Assembly (NCBI GenBank): GCA_040753875.1
Contig: JBFMDV010000003.1
Span: 1 to 48,398 of the forward strand
Direction: 5' to 3'
Source of the DNA: Candidatus Zixiibacteriota bacterium
GTDB lineage: Bacteria; Zixibacteria; MSB-5A5; GN15; FEB-12
Length of the DNA: 48,398 bases
Shown: positions 2,520 through 31,982 of the stretch, piece after piece
Numbering within the stretch: the stretch's first letter is position 1
Layout of the letters: every line of letters begins with the position of its first letter
Position numbers and translations under genes: made by a program
Notes under the pieces: generated by a model
The model's database searches: none
What the model saw: the letters and a program-made list of their open reading frames with translations, nothing else
What the model was told of the DNA's origin: nothing

Positions 2520-3533
2520 CTACGCGCGGGATTTGATCTCTTTGATCAGCTCGTCGGTGAATTCGGTGGTGGAGCAACTGCCGCCGAGGTCGTTCGTCAA
2601 ATGGTGCCCCATCGCCAACGACAACACCATCGCCTTCCAGATTCGGTCCGCCGCCTCCGGCTCGCCAATATGACGAAGCATCAACAACGACGAGAAAATA
2701 AGCGCGGTCGGATTGGCGATGTTCTTGCCTGCAATGTCCGGCGCGGTCCCGTGCACCGCCTCGAACACCGAGTACTCCTCGCCGATATTCGCGCCCGGCA
2801 CCACGCCCAGCCCACCCACCAGACCGGCGGCGAGGTCCGAGACAATATCACCAAACAGATTGCCGAGCAGGAGAACATCGAAGCGCGAGGGGTCCATCAC
2901 CAGATGCATGCAGAGGGCATCAACGATTTTGTCCTCCGCCTTGATATCAGGGTACTCCTTGGCGACCTCCTCGAACACCTGCAAGAAGAGGCCATCGGAG
3001 ATCTTCATGATGTTCGCCTTGTGCACGAGCGTGACTTTTTTGCGGCCGTTCTTGCGGGCGTATTCGAAAGCGAACCGGGCGATCCGCTGGGAGGCTTTTT
3101 CGGTCACCACTTTGATAGCGTTCACCACGCCTGGGGAGACCATGCTTTCGATGCCGGTGTAGAGGTCCTCGGTGTTTTCGCGGACGATGACCAGGTCGAC
3201 TTTGTCGAAACGGCTCGGGACGCCGCCGATCGATTTGACGGGGCGGAGGTTGGCGTAGAGGTCGAGTTTCTGGCGGAGGGTGACGTTGGCGGAGCGGAAC
3301 CCTTTGCCGACGAACGTGGTGAGCGGGCCTTTGAGAGCGACTTTGTTTTTCTTGATGGAATCGAGGAGGCCATCAGGGACCGACTCGCCGTATTTCTGGA
3401 TGGCGGCGGCGCCGGCATCGAAGCGCTCCCAGGCGATATCGACTCCGGCGGCCTCGATGACGCGGACGGTGGCGTCGGAGACCTCGGGGCCGATGCCGTC
3501 GCCGGGGATGAGGGTAAGGGTATGTTTAGCCAT
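2520..3533 (-). CDS. icd: NAD-type isocitrate dehydrogenase
   Basis: This 337-residue decarboxylating dehydrogenase of the isocitrate/isopropylmalate family converts isocitrate to 2-oxoglutarate in the cytoplasm. It has the N-terminal IPGDGIGPEV nucleotide-site start. RENTEDLYTGIE (about residues 114-125) is the phrase typical of isocitrate-specific members. VHKANIMK follows with the catalytic Lys, and GTAPDIAGKNIANP lies in the cofactor loop. The length matches the short mitochondrial-like NAD-IDH class rather than the 400-residue NADP enzyme. 3-isopropylmalate or homoisocitrate dehydrogenase is a less likely alternative because the RENTEDLY phrase favours isocitrate. No operon partner is visible: it is followed by a convergent methylase and preceded by a repeat-filled gap. 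Confidence 0.92.
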   Translation of the reverse strand: MAKHTLTLIPGDGIGPEVSDATVRVIEAAGVDIAWERFDAGAAAIQKYGESVPDGLLDSIKKNKVALKGPLTTFVGKGFRSANVTLRQKLDLYANLRPVKSIGGVPSRFDKVDLVIVRENTEDLYTGIESMVSPGVVNAIKVVTEKASQRIARFAFEYARKNGRKKVTLVHKANIMKISDGLFLQVFEEVAKEYPDIKAEDKIVDALCMHLVMDPSRFDVLLLGNLFGDIVSDLAAGLVGGLGVVPGANIGEEYSVFEAVHGTAPDIAGKNIANPTALIFSSLLMLRHIGEPEAADRIWKAMVLSLAMGHHLTNDLGGSCSTTEFTDELIKEIKSRA

Positions 3534-3922: not shown

Positions 3923-4540
3923 TTAAGAGAGCGGCAGCACGCTCTTGATCGCCTCAAGCAACTCAGTCTTGTTGGCCATCGAAATCTGGCGGCCGGCGAT
4001 CGGGAGGCCGGGGACAGTGCGGGCGTACTGGCGGAGTTTGACCACCGGCATGGCTTCGAGATCGTCGAGGGTGACAGTTCCGGCCTGGACCGGTTTGGGT
4101 GTGGGCGCAGAGATGGTTGCGGGGGTGGGAGTAGGCGCGGGTTTCGGTTTGGGGGATGGCTTGGGAGGGGCTGATATCGGCTTGGGTTTAGGTGCCGGTT
4201 TCGGTGGTGCAGGTCTGTTCGGTGGTGTGTGAGCGATGTCGCCGTTGGTGTACTTTTTCAGGAAGCGGACATAGGGTCGGAGCGGCTCAATTCCCTCGTC
4301 GGGGCGGGCGATGATGTGCATGGAGATGAGCTGGCCGGTTCGTTCGGCGGCAAGTGCTCCGGCCTCGACGGCGGTTGAGACTGATGCGCGGTCCCCCTCG
4401 ATGCGGACAGTGACACGTCCACTCGTGCTCTGCTCGGCTGAGGCGATGGCGACCTCGGCCGCCTGGGTGGCAGCGCGGGTGGCTTCAATCGCACCCAGCA
4501 TTCCCTTGGTTTCGATCAGTCCGAGCGCTTCGCGTGGCAT
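3923..4540 (-). CDS. BMC-domain microcompartment shell protein with Pro-rich linker and Rho-N/SAP-like tail
   Basis: Residues 2-92 (205 in all from the ATG at 4540) form one BMC domain. EALGLIETKGMLGAIEA opens it, and GRVTVRIEGDRASV and AGALAAERTGQLISMHII follow, as in hexameric shell proteins of the PduA/CcmK class. Residues 103-153 are a Pro/Lys/Ala-rich linker (repeated PKPAPKPKP type). Residues 155-205 form a separate small helical domain (LDDLEAMP, LRQYAR, KTELLEAIKSVL) resembling Rho N-terminal/SAP/HeH folds that bind nucleic acid or protein. The frame is open upstream to 4645, but homology starts at MPREALGL. A GGGAG lies only one base before that ATG, so the start is not certain. No other shell protein or cargo enzyme is in the window. 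Confidence 0.85.
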   Translation of the reverse strand: MPREALGLIETKGMLGAIEATRAATQAAEVAIASAEQSTSGRVTVRIEGDRASVSTAVEAGALAAERTGQLISMHIIARPDEGIEPLRPYVRFLKKYTNGDIAHTPPNRPAPPKPAPKPKPISAPPKPSPKPKPAPTPTPATISAPTPKPVQAGTVTLDDLEAMPVVKLRQYARTVPGLPIAGRQISMANKTELLEAIKSVLPLS

Positions 4541-4642
4541 GCTCCCAAAGAAACGGGAGCAGCGTACGGATGCAACCATAAAACAGGCAGACATCGTCTG
4601 TTCTACCGCTTCGCGTCGTGTGTTGCCAACCACACACATAAA

Positions 4643-4683
4643 CAAAAAAAATCACCGTCCGCACTCCCCTCGAATGCGGACGG
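4643..4683 (-). terminator. Intrinsic terminator, minus strand
   Basis: A perfect 9-bp stem (CCGTCCGCA pairing with TGCGGACGG, arms at 4655-4663 and 4675-4683) is followed on the minus strand by TGA and eight Ts. It lies between the sigma-54 regulator (ends 5039) and the BMC gene (starts about 4540). It therefore either ends read-through from the regulator or acts in the BMC leader. Confidence 0.8.
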
Positions 4684-5038
4684 CGGGATACACCCTTAAA
4701 GATTCAGAAGCGTCTCCAATGCGTGAGCGTGTGACTGGCGCAAAGGAGTAACAATGACCAGCTTACCTATTGCAACGTTCGTGCCGGTCAGGGCATGTTG
4801 AACTGCCGGCAGGCCGTAAGTGATTGCTGGGGAGAAAGTTGTGATGTGGTGTGCGACGGAATGTGGGATTCGACTGTTGAATCAATTCGTATCAATCGAC
4901 GAACCGTGTCTGAATAAAATGCGGCAAGTGCCTGATAAGCAGACACTTACCGCAACCAAGGAGATAATACGAAAGGTCGTATTTTTGTACGAGGGCCAAC
5001 CCGAGGTCGGCCCTCGTAGGCGGTTCAACTGACGGTCG
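4684..5038. other. Gene-free stretch with a hairpin cluster (4921-5017)
   Basis: I see no credible gene. Three inverted repeats follow one another just past the 3' end of the regulator: 4921-4953 (10-bp arms, one mismatch), 4967-4983 (AATACGA, AAGG, TCGTATT, then Ts on the plus strand) and 4989-5017 (ACGAGGGCC with GGCCCTCGT). The last lies 22 bases past the regulator stop and could protect or end the mRNA, although it has only an A-rich tail on that strand. A 70-codon open frame at 4820-5032 has no homology or ribosome site. Confidence 0.45.
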
Positions 5039-7300
5039 TCAGTTCACCGACCCGGAGGCGGCGGCTGACAGATACCGTTTCAATTTCAGGCGCACAGTTG
5101 CCTCGTGGACACCCAGCAACCGTGCGGCTTCGCACTTGTTGCCGTTGGTGGCCATGAGCGCCTCCATGATAAGCTGCCGTTCGAACTGGTGGACACGGTC
5201 GAACAGTGTCGCCCGCGCCGGAGCGGAGTCGCCGCCGAACAGCGAACGGGCCAGCTCCACCACGTCTCCCTCGGCAACCAGTTGCGCCATCACTTCGAGC
5301 CGGCGGACTTTGTTTTCCAGCTCGCGGATGTTGCCGGGCCAGTCGTAATCGACAAACTGCTTGACCAGTTCAGCCGGTACTTTCTGACCAGCCGCCAGAA
5401 GATGATGCCGTACCAGGAACTGCTCCAGCAGAAGCGGGATATCCTCTTTGCGCTCTCTCAGCGGCGGAATGTGGAAATGAATGCCACTCAGGCGGAAGAA
5501 CAGGTCCTGACGGAACGTGCCCTGATCGACCATATCCTGCAGGTTTTTGTTCGTCGCCGCGACGAGCTTGATATCGAGCGCCACCTCCTGGGTACTGCCA
5601 AGCGGCAGGACCCTGCGCTTCTCGATCACGCCGAGCAGCTTAGCCTGGAGGCTGAGCGGGAGGTCACCGATCTCATCGAGCATAAGCACGCCGCCGTTGG
5701 CCGTCACAAACAGGCCCTGCTTGTGTGTAACCGCGCCGGTGAATGCTCCGCGATGGTAACCGAACAGCTCGGATTCCAGCAGAGTCTCCGGAAGCGAAGC
5801 GCAGTTGATGGCGACATACGGTTTGTCGGGGCGCACCGTGGCATGGAAATAGCGCGCCATATGGTCCTTGCCGACCCCGGTTTCACCGGTGATCAGGACC
5901 GGCAGATCGGTGCGCGTCAGCATGGCGATCTGCGCCTTGATCCTGAGAACTGCCGGTGCGACAGTCAGGTAATCGACCGGATCGTGCTCGATCTTCCCCT
6001 TCCTGTGGGAGGTTGTGTCCCCGGTGCGGGGTTTGTCCAGGTCGCCGATGAACTGATTGATCTCTTCCTGGCGGGCAGTGAGACCGCTTCGCATGTAGAA
6101 CTCCTCGGCGCGGAAAAGATAGGTCATCCGTTCGCGTATGCTAAAAAGCTCCGAACGGCCGAGTGCGATCAGCGCCTCTGCCTTTTCGAATCTGACGCCG
6201 GATTCGGCCAGGAGATCGAGCCCCCTGAGGAAGCTCTGCCGCGCTTTGTCCTTATGGCCGAGCGCCTGGTTGATGAGACCGGCGAGCTTGTGCAGCGCAC
6301 CCATCTCTACCAGTTGGTCAGACTTCTCCATGAGCGGCATTGCCTCGCTGACATACTGTTGCGCCCGGCGGTAGTCGCCGGTGCGGACCGACAGTTCCGC
6401 AAGGTGACGCATCACGCGAGCATCGAGCACGGACCGGGGGGCAATCGCCTCGGCCATCGTCAGCGCCCGCTGGAGCGATTCGCGCGCTTCGGCATGTTGA
6501 TCCATCCGGTACTGCAACTCGCCCAGATAGGTCAGATAGACGACCTCATCCCGCTTGCGGTTCAAATGGACAATGAGCCGATACGCTTCGGCAAGCGATT
6601 CCGAGGCCTTGGCGTACTGCTGTTTCTGTATCTGCAGGTATCCCAGCGAGAGGAACGCCCGCTCGGTTTCGAGTTCGTCGGACAACCGCCTGGACAGGTC
6701 GACATTGATGAGCAGATGTCGCTCGGCCTCGTCGAAATCACCCGTGAAGGTGTAAATGCGGCCGATATTGCCCATCATGTAGGCGAGTTTCTGTTTGTCG
6801 TCAAGTTTCCTGGCGATGGCAACAGCATCCATGAGCAGGGCCACGGCGTTGCGATAGTCGCACTTCTGGAAGAGAAGTCCGGCCAGGAGGTTGAGGGCAT
6901 CACTCTGTCCCGGGAGATTGTCGTTGCGCCTGAAGATCGATTCCGCATCGCGCCACGCTTTTTCCGCCTCCTTGAGTTCACCCAGATCGCGGAGGATCCG
7001 GCCGATGGTCACGCAGATGTCGGCCATCAGCGAGGTATCGCCGTCCTGGGCCGCCATGGCCTGTGCGCGACGGGCCAGGCGGAGAGCAATCGGGAGATGA
7101 GTCAGTGAGGCGTGTGCCTTGGCGGCGGCATGCAGGATCGCTCCAGCCTCGGTGCCACGGCATGATTCGAGAGCACTCTGGTGCATCTCGAAGCATGCAA
7201 CGGCGCCGTGAAAGTCCCGCCGCTGGAGCAAGGCCATCAGTTCATGATGAATGCGCTCGCCTTGGCCGGATTTCTGGCTATGTGTATCCTGTATTTTCAT
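5039..7300 (-). CDS. Sigma-54-dependent transcriptional activator with N-terminal TPR array
   Basis: This 753-residue cytoplasmic regulator has three parts. Residues about 20-420 are helical TPR-like repeats (many YxxAxxxL-type pairs, for example GDFDEAERHLL and QYAKASESLAEAY). Residues about 445-680 are an AAA+ sigma-54 interaction module with Walker A GETGVGKD (472-479), the GAFTGA loop (518-523) and Walker B MLDEIG (540-545). Residues about 710-745 are a Fis-type helix-turn-helix (NKCEAARLLGVHEATVRLKL). There is no receiver or GAF domain, so the TPR array probably senses a protein or peptide partner. The gene starts three bases after the stop of a small secreted-protein gene and shares its promoter. 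An AGGAG lies upstream of the ATG. Its targets are unknown, and I found no convincing -24/-12 site nearby. Confidence 0.93.
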   Translation of the reverse strand: MKIQDTHSQKSGQGERIHHELMALLQRRDFHGAVACFEMHQSALESCRGTEAGAILHAAAKAHASLTHLPIALRLARRAQAMAAQDGDTSLMADICVTIGRILRDLGELKEAEKAWRDAESIFRRNDNLPGQSDALNLLAGLLFQKCDYRNAVALLMDAVAIARKLDDKQKLAYMMGNIGRIYTFTGDFDEAERHLLINVDLSRRLSDELETERAFLSLGYLQIQKQQYAKASESLAEAYRLIVHLNRKRDEVVYLTYLGELQYRMDQHAEARESLQRALTMAEAIAPRSVLDARVMRHLAELSVRTGDYRRAQQYVSEAMPLMEKSDQLVEMGALHKLAGLINQALGHKDKARQSFLRGLDLLAESGVRFEKAEALIALGRSELFSIRERMTYLFRAEEFYMRSGLTARQEEINQFIGDLDKPRTGDTTSHRKGKIEHDPVDYLTVAPAVLRIKAQIAMLTRTDLPVLITGETGVGKDHMARYFHATVRPDKPYVAINCASLPETLLESELFGYHRGAFTGAVTHKQGLFVTANGGVLMLDEIGDLPLSLQAKLLGVIEKRRVLPLGSTQEVALDIKLVAATNKNLQDMVDQGTFRQDLFFRLSGIHFHIPPLRERKEDIPLLLEQFLVRHHLLAAGQKVPAELVKQFVDYDWPGNIRELENKVRRLEVMAQLVAEGDVVELARSLFGGDSAPARATLFDRVHQFERQLIMEALMATNGNKCEAARLLGVHEATVRLKLKRYLSAAASGSVN

Positions 7301-7303
7301 CGT

Positions 7304-7684
7304 TCAGTTACCTGCTCCTGTTGAGTGCCCCGAACCATTCGATGCTGCGCCCGTGGTGCCGAGGTTTGACGGCAGCGACGAGGGCTGCTCCGTCGCCGGC
7401 ACTGTTTTCGATTCGGGCAGAAGTCCCGGCAGAATGAAGCGATAGAAGAACAGGTCGATCAGCAGGTGGCCGGTGATGCGGGGTTGGGAAACGCTCGTGG
7501 AACCACTGCTGCTGATGTCGCCAATCGGCTCGGTGTAACCGTTGCCGCCCCAGGGGTGGTCATCACCCGGTTCAGTGCGGGCCAGGCCGTGCCGGCCGTA
7601 CGGGCTGCTCACCGACCAGGTGGTGGTCGCGATGCCCAGCACTACCAGCAGAACCAGTGCTGCGAGGGTACGAATCCTTGTCAT
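7304..7684 (-). CDS. Small secreted or membrane-tethered protein of unknown function
   Basis: I do not recognise this 126-residue protein. The start at 7684 is set by AAGGAG seven bases upstream. The frame runs further upstream, but without hydrophobic character and across the promoter. Residues 1-25 (MTRIRTLAALVLLVVLGIA) form a signal peptide or membrane anchor. The middle is low in charge with Gly, Ser and Pro (HPWGGNGYTEPIGD). A short hydrophobic segment near residues 75-90 contains LLIDLFFYRFILPGLLP, and the tail is Ser/Thr/Gly-rich. It is the first gene of an operon with the TPR-type sigma-54 activator, so it may be a signal or partner read by the TPR domain. That is inference from position only. 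Confidence 0.6.
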   Translation of the reverse strand: MTRIRTLAALVLLVVLGIATTTWSVSSPYGRHGLARTEPGDDHPWGGNGYTEPIGDISSSGSTSVSQPRITGHLLIDLFFYRFILPGLLPESKTVPATEQPSSLPSNLGTTGAASNGSGHSTGAGN

Positions 7685-7931: not shown

Positions 7932-9344
7932 ATGACACAATTAGCTGCAATGGACCGCGACATTGACCTCAAACGGGCAGTGGCCCTGATTTTGATAGCG
8001 AGCTTCCTGTTCGCAACCGTATTAGTGGCGATCGGACGTCCTCTGCCCGCACTCGCCCTTCTGACGGCACCGGCTGTCGCATATTTGTACGCATCGCCGC
8101 GCGCCTGTTTTTACATTTTTCTTGTCAGTATTGGCTTCCATCTGCCCTATTTCATAGGGACTTTTGCCCTTTGGCCGTTCGATATCGCCTTAGTGGTGCT
8201 GTTTTCCGCGATCCTACTGGACTTTCTGTTACACCGGCAGACCGATATCCGTCGCACCGAGTACGATCTGGCGTTCTTTTTCCTCATTGGCGCCACCTGG
8301 CTGTCGGCCCTGTTCGCTTTCGACCGATCCCAGGCGATCGTGCCCTCGTTTCGTATCATGGCAATCTACATTGCGTTCCGGGCGGTTTTCAAGATGTCTT
8401 CCGAGATCGGTGTGAGAAAAATAGTTCTATTCTATATCTGGCAGGTGTTCGCGCTGTCAGTGGTAAATATTTTCCTATTCCTGATGGCTGGCGGCAAAGA
8501 GCGCGTCTTTGGTCCATCGTGGCTGGCGTTTGAAAACTACAGCATGACGGCGGTGCCGATGGCACTCGCCTTTTTTATCTGGGCGGACTCCACGCGGGAA
8601 AGACTCATGTATGCCCTCGTTGCGATCGTCATTCTGTTTGCGGTGGCAGCATCCGGTTCCCGCGGCTCAATGCTGGCCATAGCGCTGGCGCTGCCGGTTC
8701 TGGTGATCGCAGCCCGGTGGAAGGCGTGTCGCGAAGGGAACCGGGGAGCAGTTCAGGCCGCCAATAGGATCATCGTCGTAGCTGGAGTCGGCGTTGCTCT
8801 GGTACTGTTTCTTGGAACAGTGCTCTTCGGCGGGTTTCTCGAACGAGTTGGTGAGTTAGTTGACTCGTTCACGCGGCCACAGGGAACAATAGCACTTCGG
8901 CTTGTCCTGTGGAAAGCGGCCATCGAGGGGTTTCTCACGAGCCCGCTCGTGGGGATCGGCATCGGCAACTACACCAGTGTCGACCAGATCATCCCCGCGA
9001 TCAAAGCTGAGCCGGTCTGGTATTACATCCGGGGAATGACTGCCCACAACGTGGTGCTTCATTATCTTGCGGAGACGGGAATCATCGGCGCTGCCGCATT
9101 GCTCACCCTGGCCGGGACCGGGCTGGCGACGGCACATCGGCGGTTCCGTCCGGCTATGGGCAACCGTGATACACAGGTAACGGCGGCGCTGTTCATCATG
9201 ATGGTTGTGTTTGTCATGAGCTTGTTCTTCATGCGGGCCTGGACCTGGTCTCAGGAGGGGTACGTGCTCGCGATCATATTTGGACTTAATGCCGCGTCGG
9301 GATGGGGCTGCCCCGGCGATTCATCGCAGACATGCCCAGACTGA
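7932..9344 (+). CDS. O-antigen ligase/polymerase family membrane protein
   Basis: This 470-residue inner-membrane protein has about ten to twelve hydrophobic segments and the O-antigen ligase (Wzy_C/WaaL) signature. ASGSRGSMLAIALALPVL comes first, then a periplasmic loop with LRLVLWKAAIEGFLTSPLVG, GIGNYTS and TAHNVVLHYLAETGIIG. Such proteins join or polymerise lipid-linked sugar repeats on the periplasmic side. It lies about 5 kb from the exopolysaccharide block at 14.4-21.4 kb and may act as its polymerase, since that block has none of its own. The 3' end overlaps the next gene. Family assignment is firm, but ligase versus polymerase cannot be decided from sequence. Confidence 0.85.
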   Translation: MTQLAAMDRDIDLKRAVALILIASFLFATVLVAIGRPLPALALLTAPAVAYLYASPRACFYIFLVSIGFHLPYFIGTFALWPFDIALVVLFSAILLDFLLHRQTDIRRTEYDLAFFFLIGATWLSALFAFDRSQAIVPSFRIMAIYIAFRAVFKMSSEIGVRKIVLFYIWQVFALSVVNIFLFLMAGGKERVFGPSWLAFENYSMTAVPMALAFFIWADSTRERLMYALVAIVILFAVAASGSRGSMLAIALALPVLVIAARWKACREGNRGAVQAANRIIVVAGVGVALVLFLGTVLFGGFLERVGELVDSFTRPQGTIALRLVLWKAAIEGFLTSPLVGIGIGNYTSVDQIIPAIKAEPVWYYIRGMTAHNVVLHYLAETGIIGAAALLTLAGTGLATAHRRFRPAMGNRDTQVTAALFIMMVVFVMSLFFMRAWTWSQEGYVLAIIFGLNAASGWGCPGDSSQTCPD

Positions 9345-10144
9345 ACCCGAAGAGGATTGCCGCCTTCCGGCGGAAGATACTTAGATTTTACAAACGGCAC
9401 GGCCGCGACCTGCCGTTTCGCCGCACGTGCGACCCCTATAGGATTGCCGTCGCCGAGATCATGCTCCAGCAGACGCAGGTGGAGCGGGTTGTCCCCAAAT
9501 ACGAGTCATGGGTCGCGCGCTGGCCGGACTGGCAGACGCTGGCCGAAGCAACAACTCGGCAACTACTCGCCATGTGGTCAGGGCTGGGGTACAACCGAAG
9601 GGCGTTGTATCTGGGGAAGCTGGCCCGTGACGTTGTGGAAAATCACGGCGGTGTTCTTCCATCTGACCCCTCAGTATTGGTGTCCCTGCCCGGTATTGGG
9701 CCGTATACGGCTCACGCGATTCTGATATTCGCCTTCAATCGACCGCTGGTCACGATCGACACCAATGTCCGGCGCGTATTACTTCATGAATTCGGGCTCC
9801 CAGCCACCTGTGCACGGAGCAAGATAGAGGCGCTGGCTGGTCAACTGTTGCCGAAACACCGCTCGCGGGACTGGCACAACGCCCTCATGGACTACAGCAA
9901 TCTGGCGCTTCCGAAGAAGATCTTCGGGATTCCCCCATTGACCCGGCAGACCCGGTTCGTGGGGTCGACTCGACAGATTCGCGGCGCGATCATCCGGCAG
10001 TTGACCCACCGAAAGAAAGTGCCGCTGGCTGAGATAGCGGGGGAGCTTGGTCGCTCGGTGGAAGATGTTCGGTCCGCCGCCGAATCGATGGCACGCGAGG
10101 GGATCGTGGTGGTTCGAAAAGGCAAGATTGGTCTGACCAATTAG
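9302..10144 (+). CDS. MutY-like adenine DNA glycosylase without Fe-S cluster, with C-terminal winged helix
   Basis: This HhH-GPD glycosylase should excise adenine opposite oxidised guanine. Numbered from 9302, the catalytic Glu is in EIMLQQTQV (Glu52), the helix-hairpin-helix is LPGIGPYTA (129-137), and the catalytic Asp is in TIDTNVRR (Asp153). The four cysteines that hold the [4Fe-4S] cluster in MutY/Nth are absent, since only two Cys occur and neither is in the right place. Instead of the NUDIX-like C-terminal domain that reads 8-oxoG, residues about 222-280 look like a small winged-helix domain (VPLAEIAGELGRSVEDVRSA). The start is uncertain: ATG at 9332 (MPRLNPK) would reduce the overlap with the upstream gene and fits family starts better. 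Confidence 0.85.
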   Translation: MGLPRRFIADMPRLNPKRIAAFRRKILRFYKRHGRDLPFRRTCDPYRIAVAEIMLQQTQVERVVPKYESWVARWPDWQTLAEATTRQLLAMWSGLGYNRRALYLGKLARDVVENHGGVLPSDPSVLVSLPGIGPYTAHAILIFAFNRPLVTIDTNVRRVLLHEFGLPATCARSKIEALAGQLLPKHRSRDWHNALMDYSNLALPKKIFGIPPLTRQTRFVGSTRQIRGAIIRQLTHRKKVPLAEIAGELGRSVEDVRSAAESMAREGIVVVRKGKIGLTN

Positions 10145-11192: not shown

Positions 11193-12179
11193 GTGTTTCA
11201 TGATAGTCACTGTGTGAATCTCCCTCCTGTAGAGACGAAAACCGTGATCGGCTACTACTCACATAAGCTTTTTCAGAGACATCTTGAGGGGTTCGGGCAT
11301 GTGGAGAGCCCGGAGCGGCTTCGGGCAATTAACACCATGCTCGACAATAGTCCGGTCAGGCAGAAGTTGACCGTGGTCGAGTCATCGCCGGCCGAACTGG
11401 AATGGCTGACGCGGGTGCATGATGCGGCGTATGTCGATAGCATTCTATCGCTGAATATCACCGATCCAGTATTGCTGGATTGGGGGGACACGGTGGCGAC
11501 AAGTGATTCGCCGCACGCGGCGCTCTATGCAGCGGGAGCCGGAGTACAGGCATGCCGGGCGGTGCTAAAGGGGGAGTATGATTTGGCGTTCTGTGCCGTG
11601 CGACCGCCGGGGCACCACGCCGAGAGGGACCGGGCGATGGGGTTCTGCATTTTCAACAACGTTGCGGTTGCAGCGGCTGACCTTCTGGAGTCGGGAGCAT
11701 TGAGCCGAGTGGCGATTGTCGATTGGGATGTGCATCATGGGAATGGGACGGAGCGGATGTTTGTCGAGGATGACCGGGTGCTGTATATCAGCTTGCACCA
11801 GTACCCGCACTATCCGGGGAGCGGGCACGCCTCAATGACCGGCAAAGGGAAGGGGGTTGGGTATACGATGAATCTCCCGATAAGCGCGGGGGCAGGCGAT
11901 GACGAATACCGTGCAGCATTTGAGACTCGGGTCATTCCGGCGCTCGATGCATTCAAGCCTGAGTTCGTTCTGATATCGGCCGGATTCGATGCACACCGCG
12001 ATGACCCATTGGCGGAGATCAATCTGAGCAGTGCGATATTCGGCGAGCTTACGCGGATGCTTAAAGCGTGCGCACGAAAGCACTGTGGTGGGATGATCGT
12101 GTCGATGCTCGAGGGGGGATATAACCTGAGGGCACTCGCGGAATCAGTTGAGTGTCATTTGCAGGCGCTGGCGGAGTGA
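11193..12179 (+). CDS. Histone deacetylase/acetoin-utilisation (AcuC-like) family deacetylase
   Basis: This zinc deacetylase of the arginase/HDAC fold has all main motifs: RPPGHHAE with the two catalytic His, DWDVHHGNGT with zinc ligands, SAGFDAHRDDPL with the third ligand, and EGGYN near the C-terminus with the catalytic Tyr. Bacterial members remove acyl groups from protein lysines or from polyamine-like molecules, and sequence alone does not tell which. The protein is about 310-328 residues. The first 17 residues of the longest frame look non-homologous. GTG at 11244 (then IGYYSHKLF) is a good alternative start. No acetyl-CoA synthetase or acetyltransferase partner is nearby. Confidence 0.9.
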   Translation: MFHDSHCVNLPPVETKTVIGYYSHKLFQRHLEGFGHVESPERLRAINTMLDNSPVRQKLTVVESSPAELEWLTRVHDAAYVDSILSLNITDPVLLDWGDTVATSDSPHAALYAAGAGVQACRAVLKGEYDLAFCAVRPPGHHAERDRAMGFCIFNNVAVAAADLLESGALSRVAIVDWDVHHGNGTERMFVEDDRVLYISLHQYPHYPGSGHASMTGKGKGVGYTMNLPISAGAGDDEYRAAFETRVIPALDAFKPEFVLISAGFDAHRDDPLAEINLSSAIFGELTRMLKACARKHCGGMIVSMLEGGYNLRALAESVECHLQALAE

Positions 12180-28903: not shown

Positions 28904-28928
28904 CGTACTTATTTGTCGAAAACATAGT

Positions 28929-29011
28929 TCCGTTGGGGGTGGCGTATAAAGAGCCGCCTGAGATCATACCCCCTTGACCTGATCCGGATAATACCGGCGT
29001 AGGGAAACGGA
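28929..29011 (+). ncRNA. TPP riboswitch (THI element)
   Basis: The conserved core is clear: GGGGGTGGC, then GCCGCCTGAGATCATACCC with the CUGAGA pyrimidine-binding loop, then CCTTGACCTGATCCGGATAA and CCGGCGTAGGGAA. The closing stem is TCCGTT (28929-28934) with AACGGA (29006-29011). All five helices of the consensus can be drawn. It lies about 130 bases before the TonB-dependent receptor gene and in the same direction. The receptor is thus predicted to be switched off when thiamine diphosphate is plentiful. Confidence 0.95.
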
Positions 29012-29144
29012 GATGTTCGAGCAACATCCCCCGAGTCCGCCAGAGCGTGGACAGACCTATCGACACAGGACGGAACCTTGCAACAACAGTACCCCTTCGT
29101 TATGCGCGAAGCGGTAGAACTGACAAGTCAGCGAGGTTACTGTC

Positions 29145-31982
29145 ATGAAAGAACGCAACACCAATCAACAGTCCCACCATGAATGGTGGGACGAAGAGCG
29201 TCGGGTCACAACATCCGCCTGGCGGCGGAAGTCAGGACCCGACGCAACGGGGCAGGCGTCCCACCGCAAGCGGTGGGGTACCACATCGGAAGCCGCACTT
29301 CGACTCCGCTCAGCTCGACGCCATGCCGTTGAGCGGCAACAGGCCCACCATGAATGGCCTGTTGAAAAAGCCTCGAAGACCCCCCACCCCTGCCCCTCTC
29401 TCTCTGGGAGAGGGTGTCGCGAAGCGACGGGTGAGGGGACTTTCTCAACACGCCATGAATGGTGGGGCACCACCCCAGCGCGCCTCACACGCCTTGGCCT
29501 GTGGGGTAGTTGCGCACTTGTCCTTCTGGCGCTCTGTACGCCTTTGCCGCTGCTCGCTGCTGAGATCGCTGGGCGCGTGGTGGACAACGAGGGGCAGCCG
29601 CTGGTGGGGGTATCGGTGGTCTCCGACATCGGCGGACTGGGTACCCAGAGCGACAGTGCCGGGCGGTTCCATCTGGCAACATCGCAGGAGATCAAGCGCG
29701 TCACATTCTCCTGCGTCGGATACCAATCGCGCACGTTCAGCGCCGAAAGCGTTCCACCGACGGTAATGCTGTCAGCAGTGTTTATCCTCGGACAGGACAT
29801 AATCGTCTCGGCCAACCGGGCGCAGAGTGGCGTGACACCGATTGCATTTGCCAATTTCTCGCAGCAGGAAATCAAGCGGGATTACACAGTGGGGGAATTT
29901 CCGCTTCTGCTGCAGAGCACGCCGAATCTGTATTCGTATTCCGACGGCGCCGGGGCGCTCGGGTACAGCTATATGTCGATCCGCGGGTTCGATGACAAGC
30001 GGATTCAGACTTATATCAACGGGGTGCCGCTGAATGACCCGGAGGACCAGGCGACGTACTTTGTCGACCTGCCAGATTTTGCATCGACCGTCACCGATAT
30101 TCAGATCCAGCGCGGTGTCGGCAATGCATTGTACGGCGACGCGTCTTTCGGCGGTTCGGTCAATATCGCCACGAATGATTTGTCACGCGAGAGACAGGTA
30201 ACTTTCTCATCGGGTTTCGGCCAATACACGGCGAACGACAAGGCTATCGGCAATCTGTCCAAACAGACGATTGAATATTCATCCGGCCTGATAGATGGCC
30301 GATGGCATTTTTCCGGGCGGTTCTCGCGGCAGAAGAGCGATGGCTACCGGTACAACAGCTGGTACAATGGCTGGGCCTACTACTATGCGGTTGCACGGCT
30401 CGATCCCAATATGACCACCGAGCTGTATGTCTACGGCGGGCCCATGAAAATGCACCTGTCGTATTGGGGCTCATCGCGCGAGGCAATCGAACAGGACCGT
30501 CGCTCCAATCCCCTCGGTTATGACAACGAAACGGACAACTTCAATCAGCCGCACTATCAACTGCACAATGCCTATCGGCTGAGCGACAAGGCCACGTTGT
30601 CCAACACACTCTACTATATTCGTGGTAGGGGATATTACGAACAATTAAAAGATGCCCAGGAGTACTGGCAGTACGATATCGACACCAGTTTAACCGACCG
30701 AGACAGTGCCGGCGCTCCGTTCGCCAGCGGCAATCTCGTGCGCCAGCAATGGGTGGCGAAGAATCAACTTGGATGGAACCCGCGACTGGATATCGACCAC
30801 GCCAAAGGAAGTCACTCGCTGGGCGGTTCGTTCTATTATTTCGACTCCGAGCATTGGGGCCAGGTGGTTTGGGCACAACACGTGGGAGGTGCGCTCAATC
30901 CGGACCATCGCTATTACGAATATCACGGCAAAAAGTGGGTCGGCTCGCTGTTCGCACAGGAATACTACAAACTGACAGACCGGCTGAGCAGCCAGTTGAC
31001 CGCGCAGCTTCGCTATCAGCGGTACAAGTTCAGCCAGGAGCGGATGGGGGCATTCAGAGGGTACCAGTACGACATCAACTGGTTCTTCTTCTCGCCGCGA
31101 TTCGGGCTGAATTACCGGCTCACCAATGAAGCCAGCCTGTTCGCCAACGCGGCGGTTTCATCACGAACTCCCACCGATGCCGATATCTACGATGCCAACG
31201 ACCCGACCATACTCCCCTCGCTCGAAATCAAGTCGGTCAGTCTGGCCGCGGGCGGCGATACCGCCTATGTGTTCGGTGATCCTACGGCAAAAAATGAGCG
31301 GCTGGTTAATTTCGAATTAGGCAGCGAGTTTACCAAATCGACGTATTCGTTCGGGTTGAATCTGTTCTGGATGGATTTCCGAAATGAGATTCTCCCGTAC
31401 GGCGGCATCAATCCTAACACCGGTCTGCCGATTACCATCAACGCCGACCGCTCGGTGCATTCCGGTATCGAAATGACCGCCTCGGCCGCACTCACCAAAG
31501 GGTTCAGGGTGAGCGGCAATTTCGCGTACAACTACAACCGGGTCAGGAAATACAGCAAGGCATTCTATTATGACAGTGACTCGGTCGTGGTAAACTTCAA
31601 AGACCACAAGTTGTCCGGCTTCCCGGAGTACCTGGGGAATCTGCTGTTGGATTACGAGCGAAAGTGGTATCGAGTGACCTTCCGACACCGGTTTGTCGGA
31701 CGGCAGTGGATGGAGCTCGCGAACATCAAGTCCCTGTCGATCGCGCCGTATAACACGGCATCGCTATCTGCGACCATCAACTGGCCGAACTTCGTGGATG
31801 CCGGCACACTCAGTTTCTCCGCCAGAGTCGACAACCTGTTTAATACCGATTATCTCGCGGCAGGTTATGGCGGCAACTACGCCTACGATGGCGGCACCGG
31901 ACCCGTGGTCGATGGCTGGGCAGAGTATTTTGTTGGTCCGGAGCGGAGCTTCTATTTGCAGATACAGTTGGAGGCGTTCTGA
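29145..31982 (+). CDS. TonB-dependent outer-membrane receptor, probably for thiamine or a precursor
   Basis: After a signal peptide the protein has a carboxypeptidase-regulatory-like domain (residues about 140-215, AGRVVDNEGQPLVGVSVVS). A plug follows (about 225-345, YSYMSIRGFDDKRIQTYING and QRGVGNALYGDASFGGSVNI), then a 22-strand barrel to the terminal QIQLEAF. Control by the TPP riboswitch points to uptake of thiamine or its precursors. The frame opens at ATG 29145, but the signal peptide only begins near residue 113. Residues 1-112 are translated from palindromic repeat DNA (29171-29473) and contain the repeated HHEW phrase three times. I see no ATG, GTG or TTG in frame just before the signal peptide, so either export tolerates this extension or the gene is impaired. 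Confidence 0.88.
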   Translation: MKERNTNQQSHHEWWDEERRVTTSAWRRKSGPDATGQASHRKRWGTTSEAALRLRSARRHAVERQQAHHEWPVEKASKTPHPCPSLSGRGCREATGEGTFSTRHEWWGTTPARLTRLGLWGSCALVLLALCTPLPLLAAEIAGRVVDNEGQPLVGVSVVSDIGGLGTQSDSAGRFHLATSQEIKRVTFSCVGYQSRTFSAESVPPTVMLSAVFILGQDIIVSANRAQSGVTPIAFANFSQQEIKRDYTVGEFPLLLQSTPNLYSYSDGAGALGYSYMSIRGFDDKRIQTYINGVPLNDPEDQATYFVDLPDFASTVTDIQIQRGVGNALYGDASFGGSVNIATNDLSRERQVTFSSGFGQYTANDKAIGNLSKQTIEYSSGLIDGRWHFSGRFSRQKSDGYRYNSWYNGWAYYYAVARLDPNMTTELYVYGGPMKMHLSYWGSSREAIEQDRRSNPLGYDNETDNFNQPHYQLHNAYRLSDKATLSNTLYYIRGRGYYEQLKDAQEYWQYDIDTSLTDRDSAGAPFASGNLVRQQWVAKNQLGWNPRLDIDHAKGSHSLGGSFYYFDSEHWGQVVWAQHVGGALNPDHRYYEYHGKKWVGSLFAQEYYKLTDRLSSQLTAQLRYQRYKFSQERMGAFRGYQYDINWFFFSPRFGLNYRLTNEASLFANAAVSSRTPTDADIYDANDPTILPSLEIKSVSLAAGGDTAYVFGDPTAKNERLVNFELGSEFTKSTYSFGLNLFWMDFRNEILPYGGINPNTGLPITINADRSVHSGIEMTASAALTKGFRVSGNFAYNYNRVRKYSKAFYYDSDSVVVNFKDHKLSGFPEYLGNLLLDYERKWYRVTFRHRFVGRQWMELANIKSLSIAPYNTASLSATINWPNFVDAGTLSFSARVDNLFNTDYLAAGYGGNYAYDGGTGPVVDGWAEYFVGPERSFYLQIQLEAF
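29171..29473. repeat. Cluster of palindromic repeats within the 5' part of the TonB receptor gene
   Basis: Elements recognised: a perfect palindrome around CCACCATGAATGG at 29171-29192, CCCACCGC/GCGGTGGG at 29260-29277, a TTCGACTCCGCTCAG copy at 29298-29319, CAACAGGCC/GGCCTGTTG at 29337-29364, and a further CCATGAATGG copy at 29453-29462. Between about 29353 and 29456 the ends GGCCTGTTGAAAAAG and CTTTCTCAACACGCC are near-inverted repeats. They enclose a C-rich/G-rich core, like a small non-autonomous palindromic element. Confidence 0.75.

What the first reader, a model, noticed from the sequence alone, without database searches (positions are those of the whole stretch)
3923..4540. Orphan BMC shell protein fused to a Rho-N/SAP-like domain
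A single BMC-H domain is joined by a Pro/Lys-rich linker of about 50 residues to a small helical domain resembling those that bind nucleic acids. No other shell gene, vertex protein or signature enzyme lies within the window. A lone hexamer with a flexible arm ending in a possible nucleic-acid or protein binder could be a scaffold for something other than a metabolic compartment. It could also belong to a satellite locus whose main operon is elsewhere.
Basis: partly seen in the sequence, partly recalled or inferred. Interest (0 to 1): 0.75.

Follow-up and report, generated by a model that had tools for sequence, protein, structure and literature searches.

The report
Lone shell protein outliving its microcompartment
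This bacterium keeps one hexagon-forming shell protein, carrying a long flexible arm that ends in a Rho-like nucleic-acid-binding-type domain, although every other part of the protein organelle to which its close relatives' copy belongs has been deleted; selection still preserves it, so it probably does a job outside any compartment.

Summary
Window 3923-4540 (-) encodes a 205-aa protein: one BMC-H domain (Pfam E 8e-18), a Pro/Lys-rich linker and a 52-residue C-terminal domain that is Rho_N-like by weak profile match and by predicted fold. It is the only BMC-domain gene in a genome rated 100% complete, which also has no EutN/CcmL vertex gene and no DUF711 gene. In the same family of Candidatus Zixiibacteriota (phylum inferred from named relatives) the ortholog is the first gene of complete loci: tailed BMC-H, BMC-P, SLBB/RnfC-like, BMC-T, ACT, DUF711. 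The window shows the same flanks with that block missing. Ten genomes of at least seven genera keep the tailed gene without BMC-P and BMC-T. Its BMC and tail domains are under purifying selection (dN/dS 0.05-0.28), and in two other genomes it is intact while BMC-P or the SLBB/BMC-T/ACT segment decays. The tailed architecture recurs in Ignavibacteria, Bacteroidota and Clostridia, nearly always with BMC-P. So this is a derived orphan, not a satellite. The most likely job is an EutK-like hexavalent nucleic-acid or partner-binding scaffold that works without a compartment (inferred, not shown). A neighbouring sigma-54-type small-RNA module is conserved and independent of the BMC genes.

The parts
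3923..4540 (-). Tailed BMC-H protein (TBH), 205 aa, ATG at 4540
4301..4528 (-). BMC domain (PF00936), the only one in the genome
   Evidence: fold
4082..4237 (-). Pro/Lys/Ala-rich flexible linker (about 50 residues, low pLDDT)
3926..4081 (-). C-terminal Rho_N/SAP-like domain, 52 aa; across 29 homologs invariant V, L, R, A, R, G, R, Q, I, S, A, N, K and L
2520..3533 (-). Isocitrate/isopropylmalate-type dehydrogenase (IDH) directly downstream; marks the far side of the missing BMC block
4640..4785 (-). Conserved intergenic ncRNA with a sigma-54-type -24/-12 element at its start and a terminator hairpin with GAGGGGA loop; separate module upstream of TBH
5039..7300 (-). Sigma-54 activator with TPR N-terminus and Fis-type HTH (REG); conserved across the order, also without BMC genes
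7304..7684 (-). Small, probably secreted protein (about 126 aa) with DDHPWGG motif (SEC), upstream partner of REG
7932..10144 (+). O-antigen-ligase-like and MutY-like genes: upstream flank shared with full-BMC relative G015, with G017 and with orphan G009

Best explanation
The gene is the surviving piece of a bacterial microcompartment operon. Its ancestor encoded a BMC-H with an arm and a Rho_N-like head, used as an accessory shell subunit of the EutK/PduK kind that links the shell to something else in the cell. In the window's lineage the rest of the locus (BMC-P, SLBB/RnfC-like protein, BMC-T, ACT protein, DUF711 protein) was lost, but this subunit was kept under purifying selection. It probably still forms a hexamer that displays six flexible arms with basic, helical heads, and so works as a hexavalent tether or scaffold. 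Its most likely ligand is nucleic acid, because the tail is Rho_N/SAP-like and net basic, in line with the proposed nucleic-acid role of EutK. Shown by computation: architecture, loss of the other BMC genes, synteny, purifying selection, Rho_N-like fold. Inferred: hexamer formation, nucleic-acid binding, work outside a compartment.
For: Only one BMC gene, no EutN, no DUF711 in a genome rated 100% complete. Same orphan state in G009, G018, G020, G026, G038, G040, G045, and with one extra BMC-H in G027 and G028. Shared flanks with the block missing: G015 reads MutY-Wzy-SEC-REG-TBH-P-SLBB-BMC-T-ACT-DUF711-SDR-IDH, the window MutY-Wzy-SEC-REG-TBH-IDH, with IDH 61% identical. Operon state is ancestral: BMC-P lies beside TBH in other families of the class and is present in 19 of 20 non-Zixi TBH genomes searched. 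Purifying selection in orphans: dN/dS 0.05-0.28 for BMC, 0.07-0.17 for tail, about 0.41-0.45 for linker where computable. Decay elsewhere with TBH intact: G052 has SLBB residues 1-56 joined in frame to ACT residues 49-195 with BMC-T gone; G036 has a stop inside BMC-P. Tail; net charge +3 in the window and positive in nearly all relatives. Literature: EutK sets Eut BMC positioning and its basic tail may bind nucleotides (PMC12487888).
Against: No binding or oligomer data. Rho_N similarity is below Pfam's gathering score in the window copy and Foldseek E-values are above 1, as expected for 52 residues. The domain could bind protein instead. Orphans sit in one weakly supported clade (69/62), with the window's six in one well supported clade (99/97), so the main loss may be a single event. 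dS is near saturation in some pairs. All are draft assemblies or MAGs.
Confidence: 0.6

Rival explanations
1. Scaffold for threonine catabolism: in orphan lineages the hexamer organises L-threonine 3-dehydrogenase (Tdh) and 2-amino-3-ketobutyrate CoA ligase (Kbl), whose intermediate is unstable, so a shell part has become a local metabolic scaffold.
For: Tdh is the next same-strand gene, or within a few genes, after TBH in G009, G018, G020, G026, G028, G032, G038 and G040. Kbl or a BioF/Kbl-type enzyme lies close in most of them. Tdh is absent from all 9 full-BMC genomes searched and present in 20 of the other 25 searched members of the family. Enzyme identities.
Against: In the window genome Tdh lies on another contig (C22) and IDH follows TBH; orphan G027 lacks Tdh. 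The adjacency may be inherited synteny within one clade, and the anticorrelation is not corrected for relatedness. A Rho_N-like tail is not a known enzyme docking domain.
Confidence: 0.15
2. Satellite shell gene of an ordinary microcompartment whose main operon was missed (assembly gap, other replicon or partner cell).
For: The assembly has 39 contigs; satellite loci are common for BMCs (PMC8217296); relatives keep a separate BMC-H gene away from the main locus.
Against: No BMC-P, second BMC domain or DUF711 in a genome rated 100% complete, nor in G009 (100%, about 20 contigs), nor BMC-P/BMC-T in the single-contig G027. The locus lies at the position of the main operon, and the expected genes are replaced by the downstream flank.
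Confidence: 0.06
3. Neutral remnant: the last gene of a dying operon, still intact by chance.
For: Operon decay is visible in G036 and G052; several relatives have no BMC gene at all; the linker drifts fast; the edge lysine of the BMC domain is changed in the window (Gln) and G009 (Asp).
Against: dN/dS well below 1 for both folded domains between diverged orphans; intact ORFs in all 10 orphans of at least seven genera; the tail is as conserved as in operon copies.
Confidence: 0.08
4. Homotypic shell-like object: the orphan self-assembles into sheets, tubes or a pentamer-free body and still serves as a minimal compartment.
For: Intact BMC fold closest to EutM/PduA/CutN; from general knowledge, BMC-H proteins can form sheets and tubes alone; G027 and G028 keep a second BMC-H.
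Against: No recognised cargo gene or other shell part in the window genome; no BMC-P to close a shell; the edge lysine is replaced in the window and G009.
Confidence: 0.11

Closest known systems
EutK (ethanolamine BMC shell protein with basic C-terminal domain) and PduK
   Same: Single BMC-H domain plus C-terminal extension; basic extension of EutK proposed to act on nucleic acid or positioning (PMC12487888)
   Different: The NCBIfam EutK model matches only the BMC part, positions 3-83 of 166, and the tail here is Rho_N-like. EutK works inside a complete Eut BMC; here there is none
Tailed BMC-H of Ignavibacteria/Bacteroidota and Clostridia (BMC-H + linker + GRQISxANK tail)
   Same: Homologous over the whole length, tail invariant residues shared
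   Different: Their genomes carry BMC-P (19 of 20 non-Zixi genomes searched); shorter linkers in most
Rho transcription termination factor N-terminal domain (PF07498) / SAP domain (PF02037)
   Same: Helical fold and profile similarity
   Different: Attached to a BMC-H rather than an RNA-binding helicase; extra conserved GRQISxANK segment; below the Pfam gathering score in the window copy
Satellite BMC loci and FRAG BMCs (Sutter et al. 2021, PMC8217296)
   Same: Shell gene far from recognisable enzymes
   Different: Those belong to a main locus with BMC-H and BMC-P in the same genome; none exists here

Membership tests
BMC-H shell protein (PF00936) | One BMC domain over the full profile with the BMC fold | tested here: met
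   64.6 bits, positions 1-75 of 75; AF2 and Foldseek to EutM/PduA/CutN
BMC-H shell protein (PF00936) | Inter-hexamer edge lysine and arginine motifs used in facet tiling | tested here: inconclusive
   Window: Lys replaced by Gln, Arg kept (ARPD); G009: Lys replaced by Asp; most other orphans keep both
BMC-H shell protein (PF00936) | Forms hexamers | not testable with these tools
   Only monomer prediction available
[quoted passage not shown]
   0 EutN/CcmL matches in the genome
Bacterial microcompartment locus | BMC-T and the enzymes found with this BMC type in relatives | tested here: not met
   No second BMC-domain gene, no DUF711
Satellite BMC locus | Main locus elsewhere in the same genome | tested here: not met
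EutK/PduK-type tailed BMC-H | BMC-H with C-terminal extension, globular and basic in EutK | tested here: met
EutK/PduK-type tailed BMC-H | C-terminal domain homologous to that of EutK | tested here: not met
   EutK model matched only through position 83 of 166
EutK/PduK-type tailed BMC-H | Positions or tethers a compartment | not testable with these tools
   Needs imaging; no compartment genes here
Rho_N domain (PF07498) | Reaches the curated family score | tested here: not met
   Window tail 16.3 bits against 24.9; best of 29 homologs E 1.5e-5
Rho_N domain (PF07498) | Rho N-terminal helical fold | tested here: inconclusive
   Top PDB match is Rho, TM 0.61, probability 0.66, three further Rho entries in the top eight, but E above 1
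Rho_N domain (PF07498) | Binds nucleic acid | not testable with these tools
   No assay

The most novel reading that the evidence does not exclude
A BMC-domain protein has been freed from compartments and made into a stand-alone hexavalent nucleic-acid-binding hub: the organelle was lost and its EutK-like tethering subunit was kept and remodelled (longer, Pro-rich arms) for a chromosome- or RNA-directed role.
Probability: 0.35. Interest if true: 0.82.

Novelty: new variant of a known kind. Interest (0 to 1): 0.62.

Why it matters
BMC-domain proteins are known as building blocks of closed shells. A lineage that deletes the organelle but keeps one tailed hexamer-type subunit under purifying selection is a natural experiment on what tailed BMC-H proteins such as EutK and PduK do apart from the shell, a question the EutK literature leaves open. 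It gives a compact, testable case: one gene, one ligand-binding head, no other shell parts. The graded series in one bacterial family (complete, decaying, orphan, absent) shows how an organelle is dismantled. The tail with its GRQISxANK signature is a recognisable domain shared by BMC-H proteins of several phyla and can be used for annotation.

Tried and rejected
Satellite-of-a-hidden-operon: rejected by whole-genome searches and synteny. Pseudogene reading of the truncated BMC matches in G013 and G023: they are cut by contig ends. Link between the sigma-54 regulator/ncRNA module and the BMC genes: not specific, since the module occurs across the order without BMC genes, so no BMC role is claimed for it. 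Rfam: no family for the ncRNA. PDB sequence search with the tail profile: one chance-level hit. Loss of the tiling lysine as a general orphan trait: only 2 of 10, not general. Linker length and Pro content are higher in orphans (medians 84.5 against 62 residues, 26% against 12% Pro; Mann-Whitney p about 0.004 and 0.002), but these tests ignore relatedness, so I treat them as suggestive. The 18-row tail alignment was too divergent for the collection scan; a 9-row version worked. Whole-genome download was not available. Literature: no paper in the held library pairs bacterial microcompartments with DUF711 or shell proteins with Rho_N/SAP terms; this library is partial. Papers were read by keyword passages, not in full.

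Full report
Observation. Window 3923-4540 on the minus strand is an intact gene of 205 codons plus stop, with ATG at 4540. It holds one BMC domain (PF00936, E 8.3e-18, full profile), a Pro/Lys/Ala-rich linker and a conserved 52-residue tail. AlphaFold2 gives a confident BMC fold, a low-confidence linker and a confident four-helix tail. Foldseek matches the BMC part to EutM, CutN and PduA. Its top match for the tail is the N-terminal region of Rho, with weak E-values for so short a query. Pfam Rho_N hits 21 of 29 homologous tails (best 1.5e-5) and SAP hits 7 (best 5e-4), although the window copy alone is below the gathering score.

Genome context. The window is the whole of contig C3 (48,398 bases) of a 3.29 Mb assembly rated 100% complete. 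The genome has no other BMC-domain gene, no EutN/CcmL gene and no DUF711 gene. The named relatives closest to the window in the tail search are Candidatus Zixiibacteriota; I infer that phylum for the window.

Relatives. Of 54 genomes in the same family, about a dozen have a locus ordered: small secreted protein (SEC), sigma-54 activator with TPRs (REG), a conserved ncRNA, tailed BMC-H (TBH), BMC-P, SLBB/RnfC-like protein, BMC-T, ACT protein, DUF711 protein, usually with a separate BMC-H elsewhere. Eight genomes, the window's included, have TBH as their only BMC-domain gene and no BMC-P (G000, G009, G018, G020, G026, G038, G040, G045); G027 and G028 have TBH plus one BMC-H and neither BMC-P nor BMC-T. 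Of these, G000, G009, G026, G028 and G045 are at least 92% complete. Others have no BMC gene.

Deletion footprint. G015 reads MutY-Wzy-SEC-REG-TBH-P-SLBB-BMC-T-ACT-DUF711-SDR-IDH, with some unrelated ORFs between P and SLBB. The window reads MutY-Wzy-SEC-REG-TBH-IDH with about 390 bases between TBH and IDH, and G009 MutY-Wzy-SEC-REG-TBH-Tdh...SDR-IDH. The IDH of the window is 61% identical to that of G015 and 81-84% to those of four other orphans. The block between TBH and the downstream flank is what is missing. Genus g20 shows decay in progress: G019 and G044 are complete; in G052 SLBB residues 1-56 run in frame into ACT residues 49-195 and BMC-T is gone; in G036 BMC-P contains a stop. Both keep TBH intact. 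A misassembly in one of these MAGs cannot be excluded.

Direction of change. In families f5 and f10 of the class, BMC-P lies directly beside TBH. Of 20 genomes outside Zixibacteria with the tailed gene (Ignavibacteria, Bacteroidota/Chlorobi, Clostridia), 19 have BMC-P. So the operon state is most simply ancestral and the orphan state derived. On the TBH tree the window's six orphans form one clade (99/97); all ten can form one clade, with weak support (69/62). The number of independent losses is therefore open, between one and several.

Selection. Between orphans of one genus, dN/dS is 0.05-0.28 in the BMC domain and 0.07-0.17 in the tail, with about 0.41-0.45 in the linker where it could be computed. 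Operon pairs give 0.02-0.11 and 0.09-0.23. dS is high in several pairs, so the exact values are rough, but all are far below 1. Orphan linkers are longer and richer in proline, which may partly reflect shared ancestry.

Mechanism. The nearest functional precedent is EutK: in Salmonella its deletion leaves Eut BMCs static at the poles, and its basic C-terminal domain is proposed to bind nucleotides (PMC12487888). The tail here is a different domain, Rho_N-like rather than EutK-like, but it is also basic, with invariant Arg and Lys residues. I therefore propose a hexamer with six flexible arms whose heads bind nucleic acid or a fixed partner. In operon-bearing species this would link the shell to the nucleoid or RNA; in orphan species the tethering hexamer persists alone. 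Hexamer formation and binding are inferred.

Rivals. A scaffold for threonine catabolism is possible because Tdh lies at or close to the next position in eight genomes with TBH and Tdh is absent from all nine full-BMC genomes searched; the window itself has Tdh on another contig, so this cannot be the general rule. A hidden main operon, a neutral remnant and a self-assembling shell-like body are considered in the rivals list.

Not part of the finding. SEC, REG and the ncRNA form a separate module; the RNA model matches 52 of 96 genomes searched, including many without BMC genes. The ncRNA region starts at a GGCAY-N6-TTGC element and ends in a hairpin with an invariant GAGGGGA loop; of its 15 predicted pairs, 7 show changes on both sides that keep the pair. 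It resembles LuxO-Qrr only in layout (sigma-54 activator beside a sigma-54-type sRNA gene); homology is not claimed, and transcription is not shown.

Verdict. A real, conserved and derived orphan of a tailed BMC-H; function outside a compartment likely but unproven. New variant of a known kind.

Noticed in passing
window 4640-4785 (-), with 5039-7300 (-) and 7304-7684 (-): Order-wide module: small, probably secreted DDHPWGG protein, sigma-54/TPR activator, and a single-copy ncRNA candidate with a sigma-54-type promoter and terminator with invariant GAGGGGA loop; 52 of 96 relatives, no Rfam family, independent of BMC genes. Layout recalls LuxO-Qrr; possibly a peptide-sensing circuit.
   Followed up: partly
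L031 8360-15140, L035 7456-17406, L039 5027-10276: BMC locus with SLBB/RnfC-like protein, BMC-T, ACT (PRK00194) and DUF711 (PRK05313) proteins in Zixibacteria, no aldehyde dehydrogenase seen among the annotated locus genes; no paper in the held library pairs BMC with DUF711, so it may be an undescribed BMC type.
   Followed up: partly
L065-L088: The GRQISxANK Rho_N-like tail is found on BMC-H proteins of Ignavibacteria, Bacteroidota/Chlorobi, Clostridium, Desulfoscipio and Thermincola; every confirmed locus read was fused to BMC-H except L064, which is cut near a contig end.
   Followed up: yes
G009, G018, G020, G026, G028, G032, G038, G040 versus full-BMC genomes: L-threonine 3-dehydrogenase lies next to or near TBH in these genomes and is absent from all nine full-BMC genomes searched: an unexplained mutual exclusion.
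   Followed up: partly
L050 687-1229 (-): In G052 SLBB residues 1-56 are joined in frame to ACT residues 49-195, removing BMC-T: an apparent operon deletion in progress (or a MAG assembly artefact).
   Followed up: partly
window 28925-29022 (+): TPP riboswitch (RF00059, 73.4 bits) upstream of the ORF at 29145.
   Followed up: no
window 11193-12179 (+): Histone-deacetylase-family protein (PF00850, E 1e-98).
   Followed up: no
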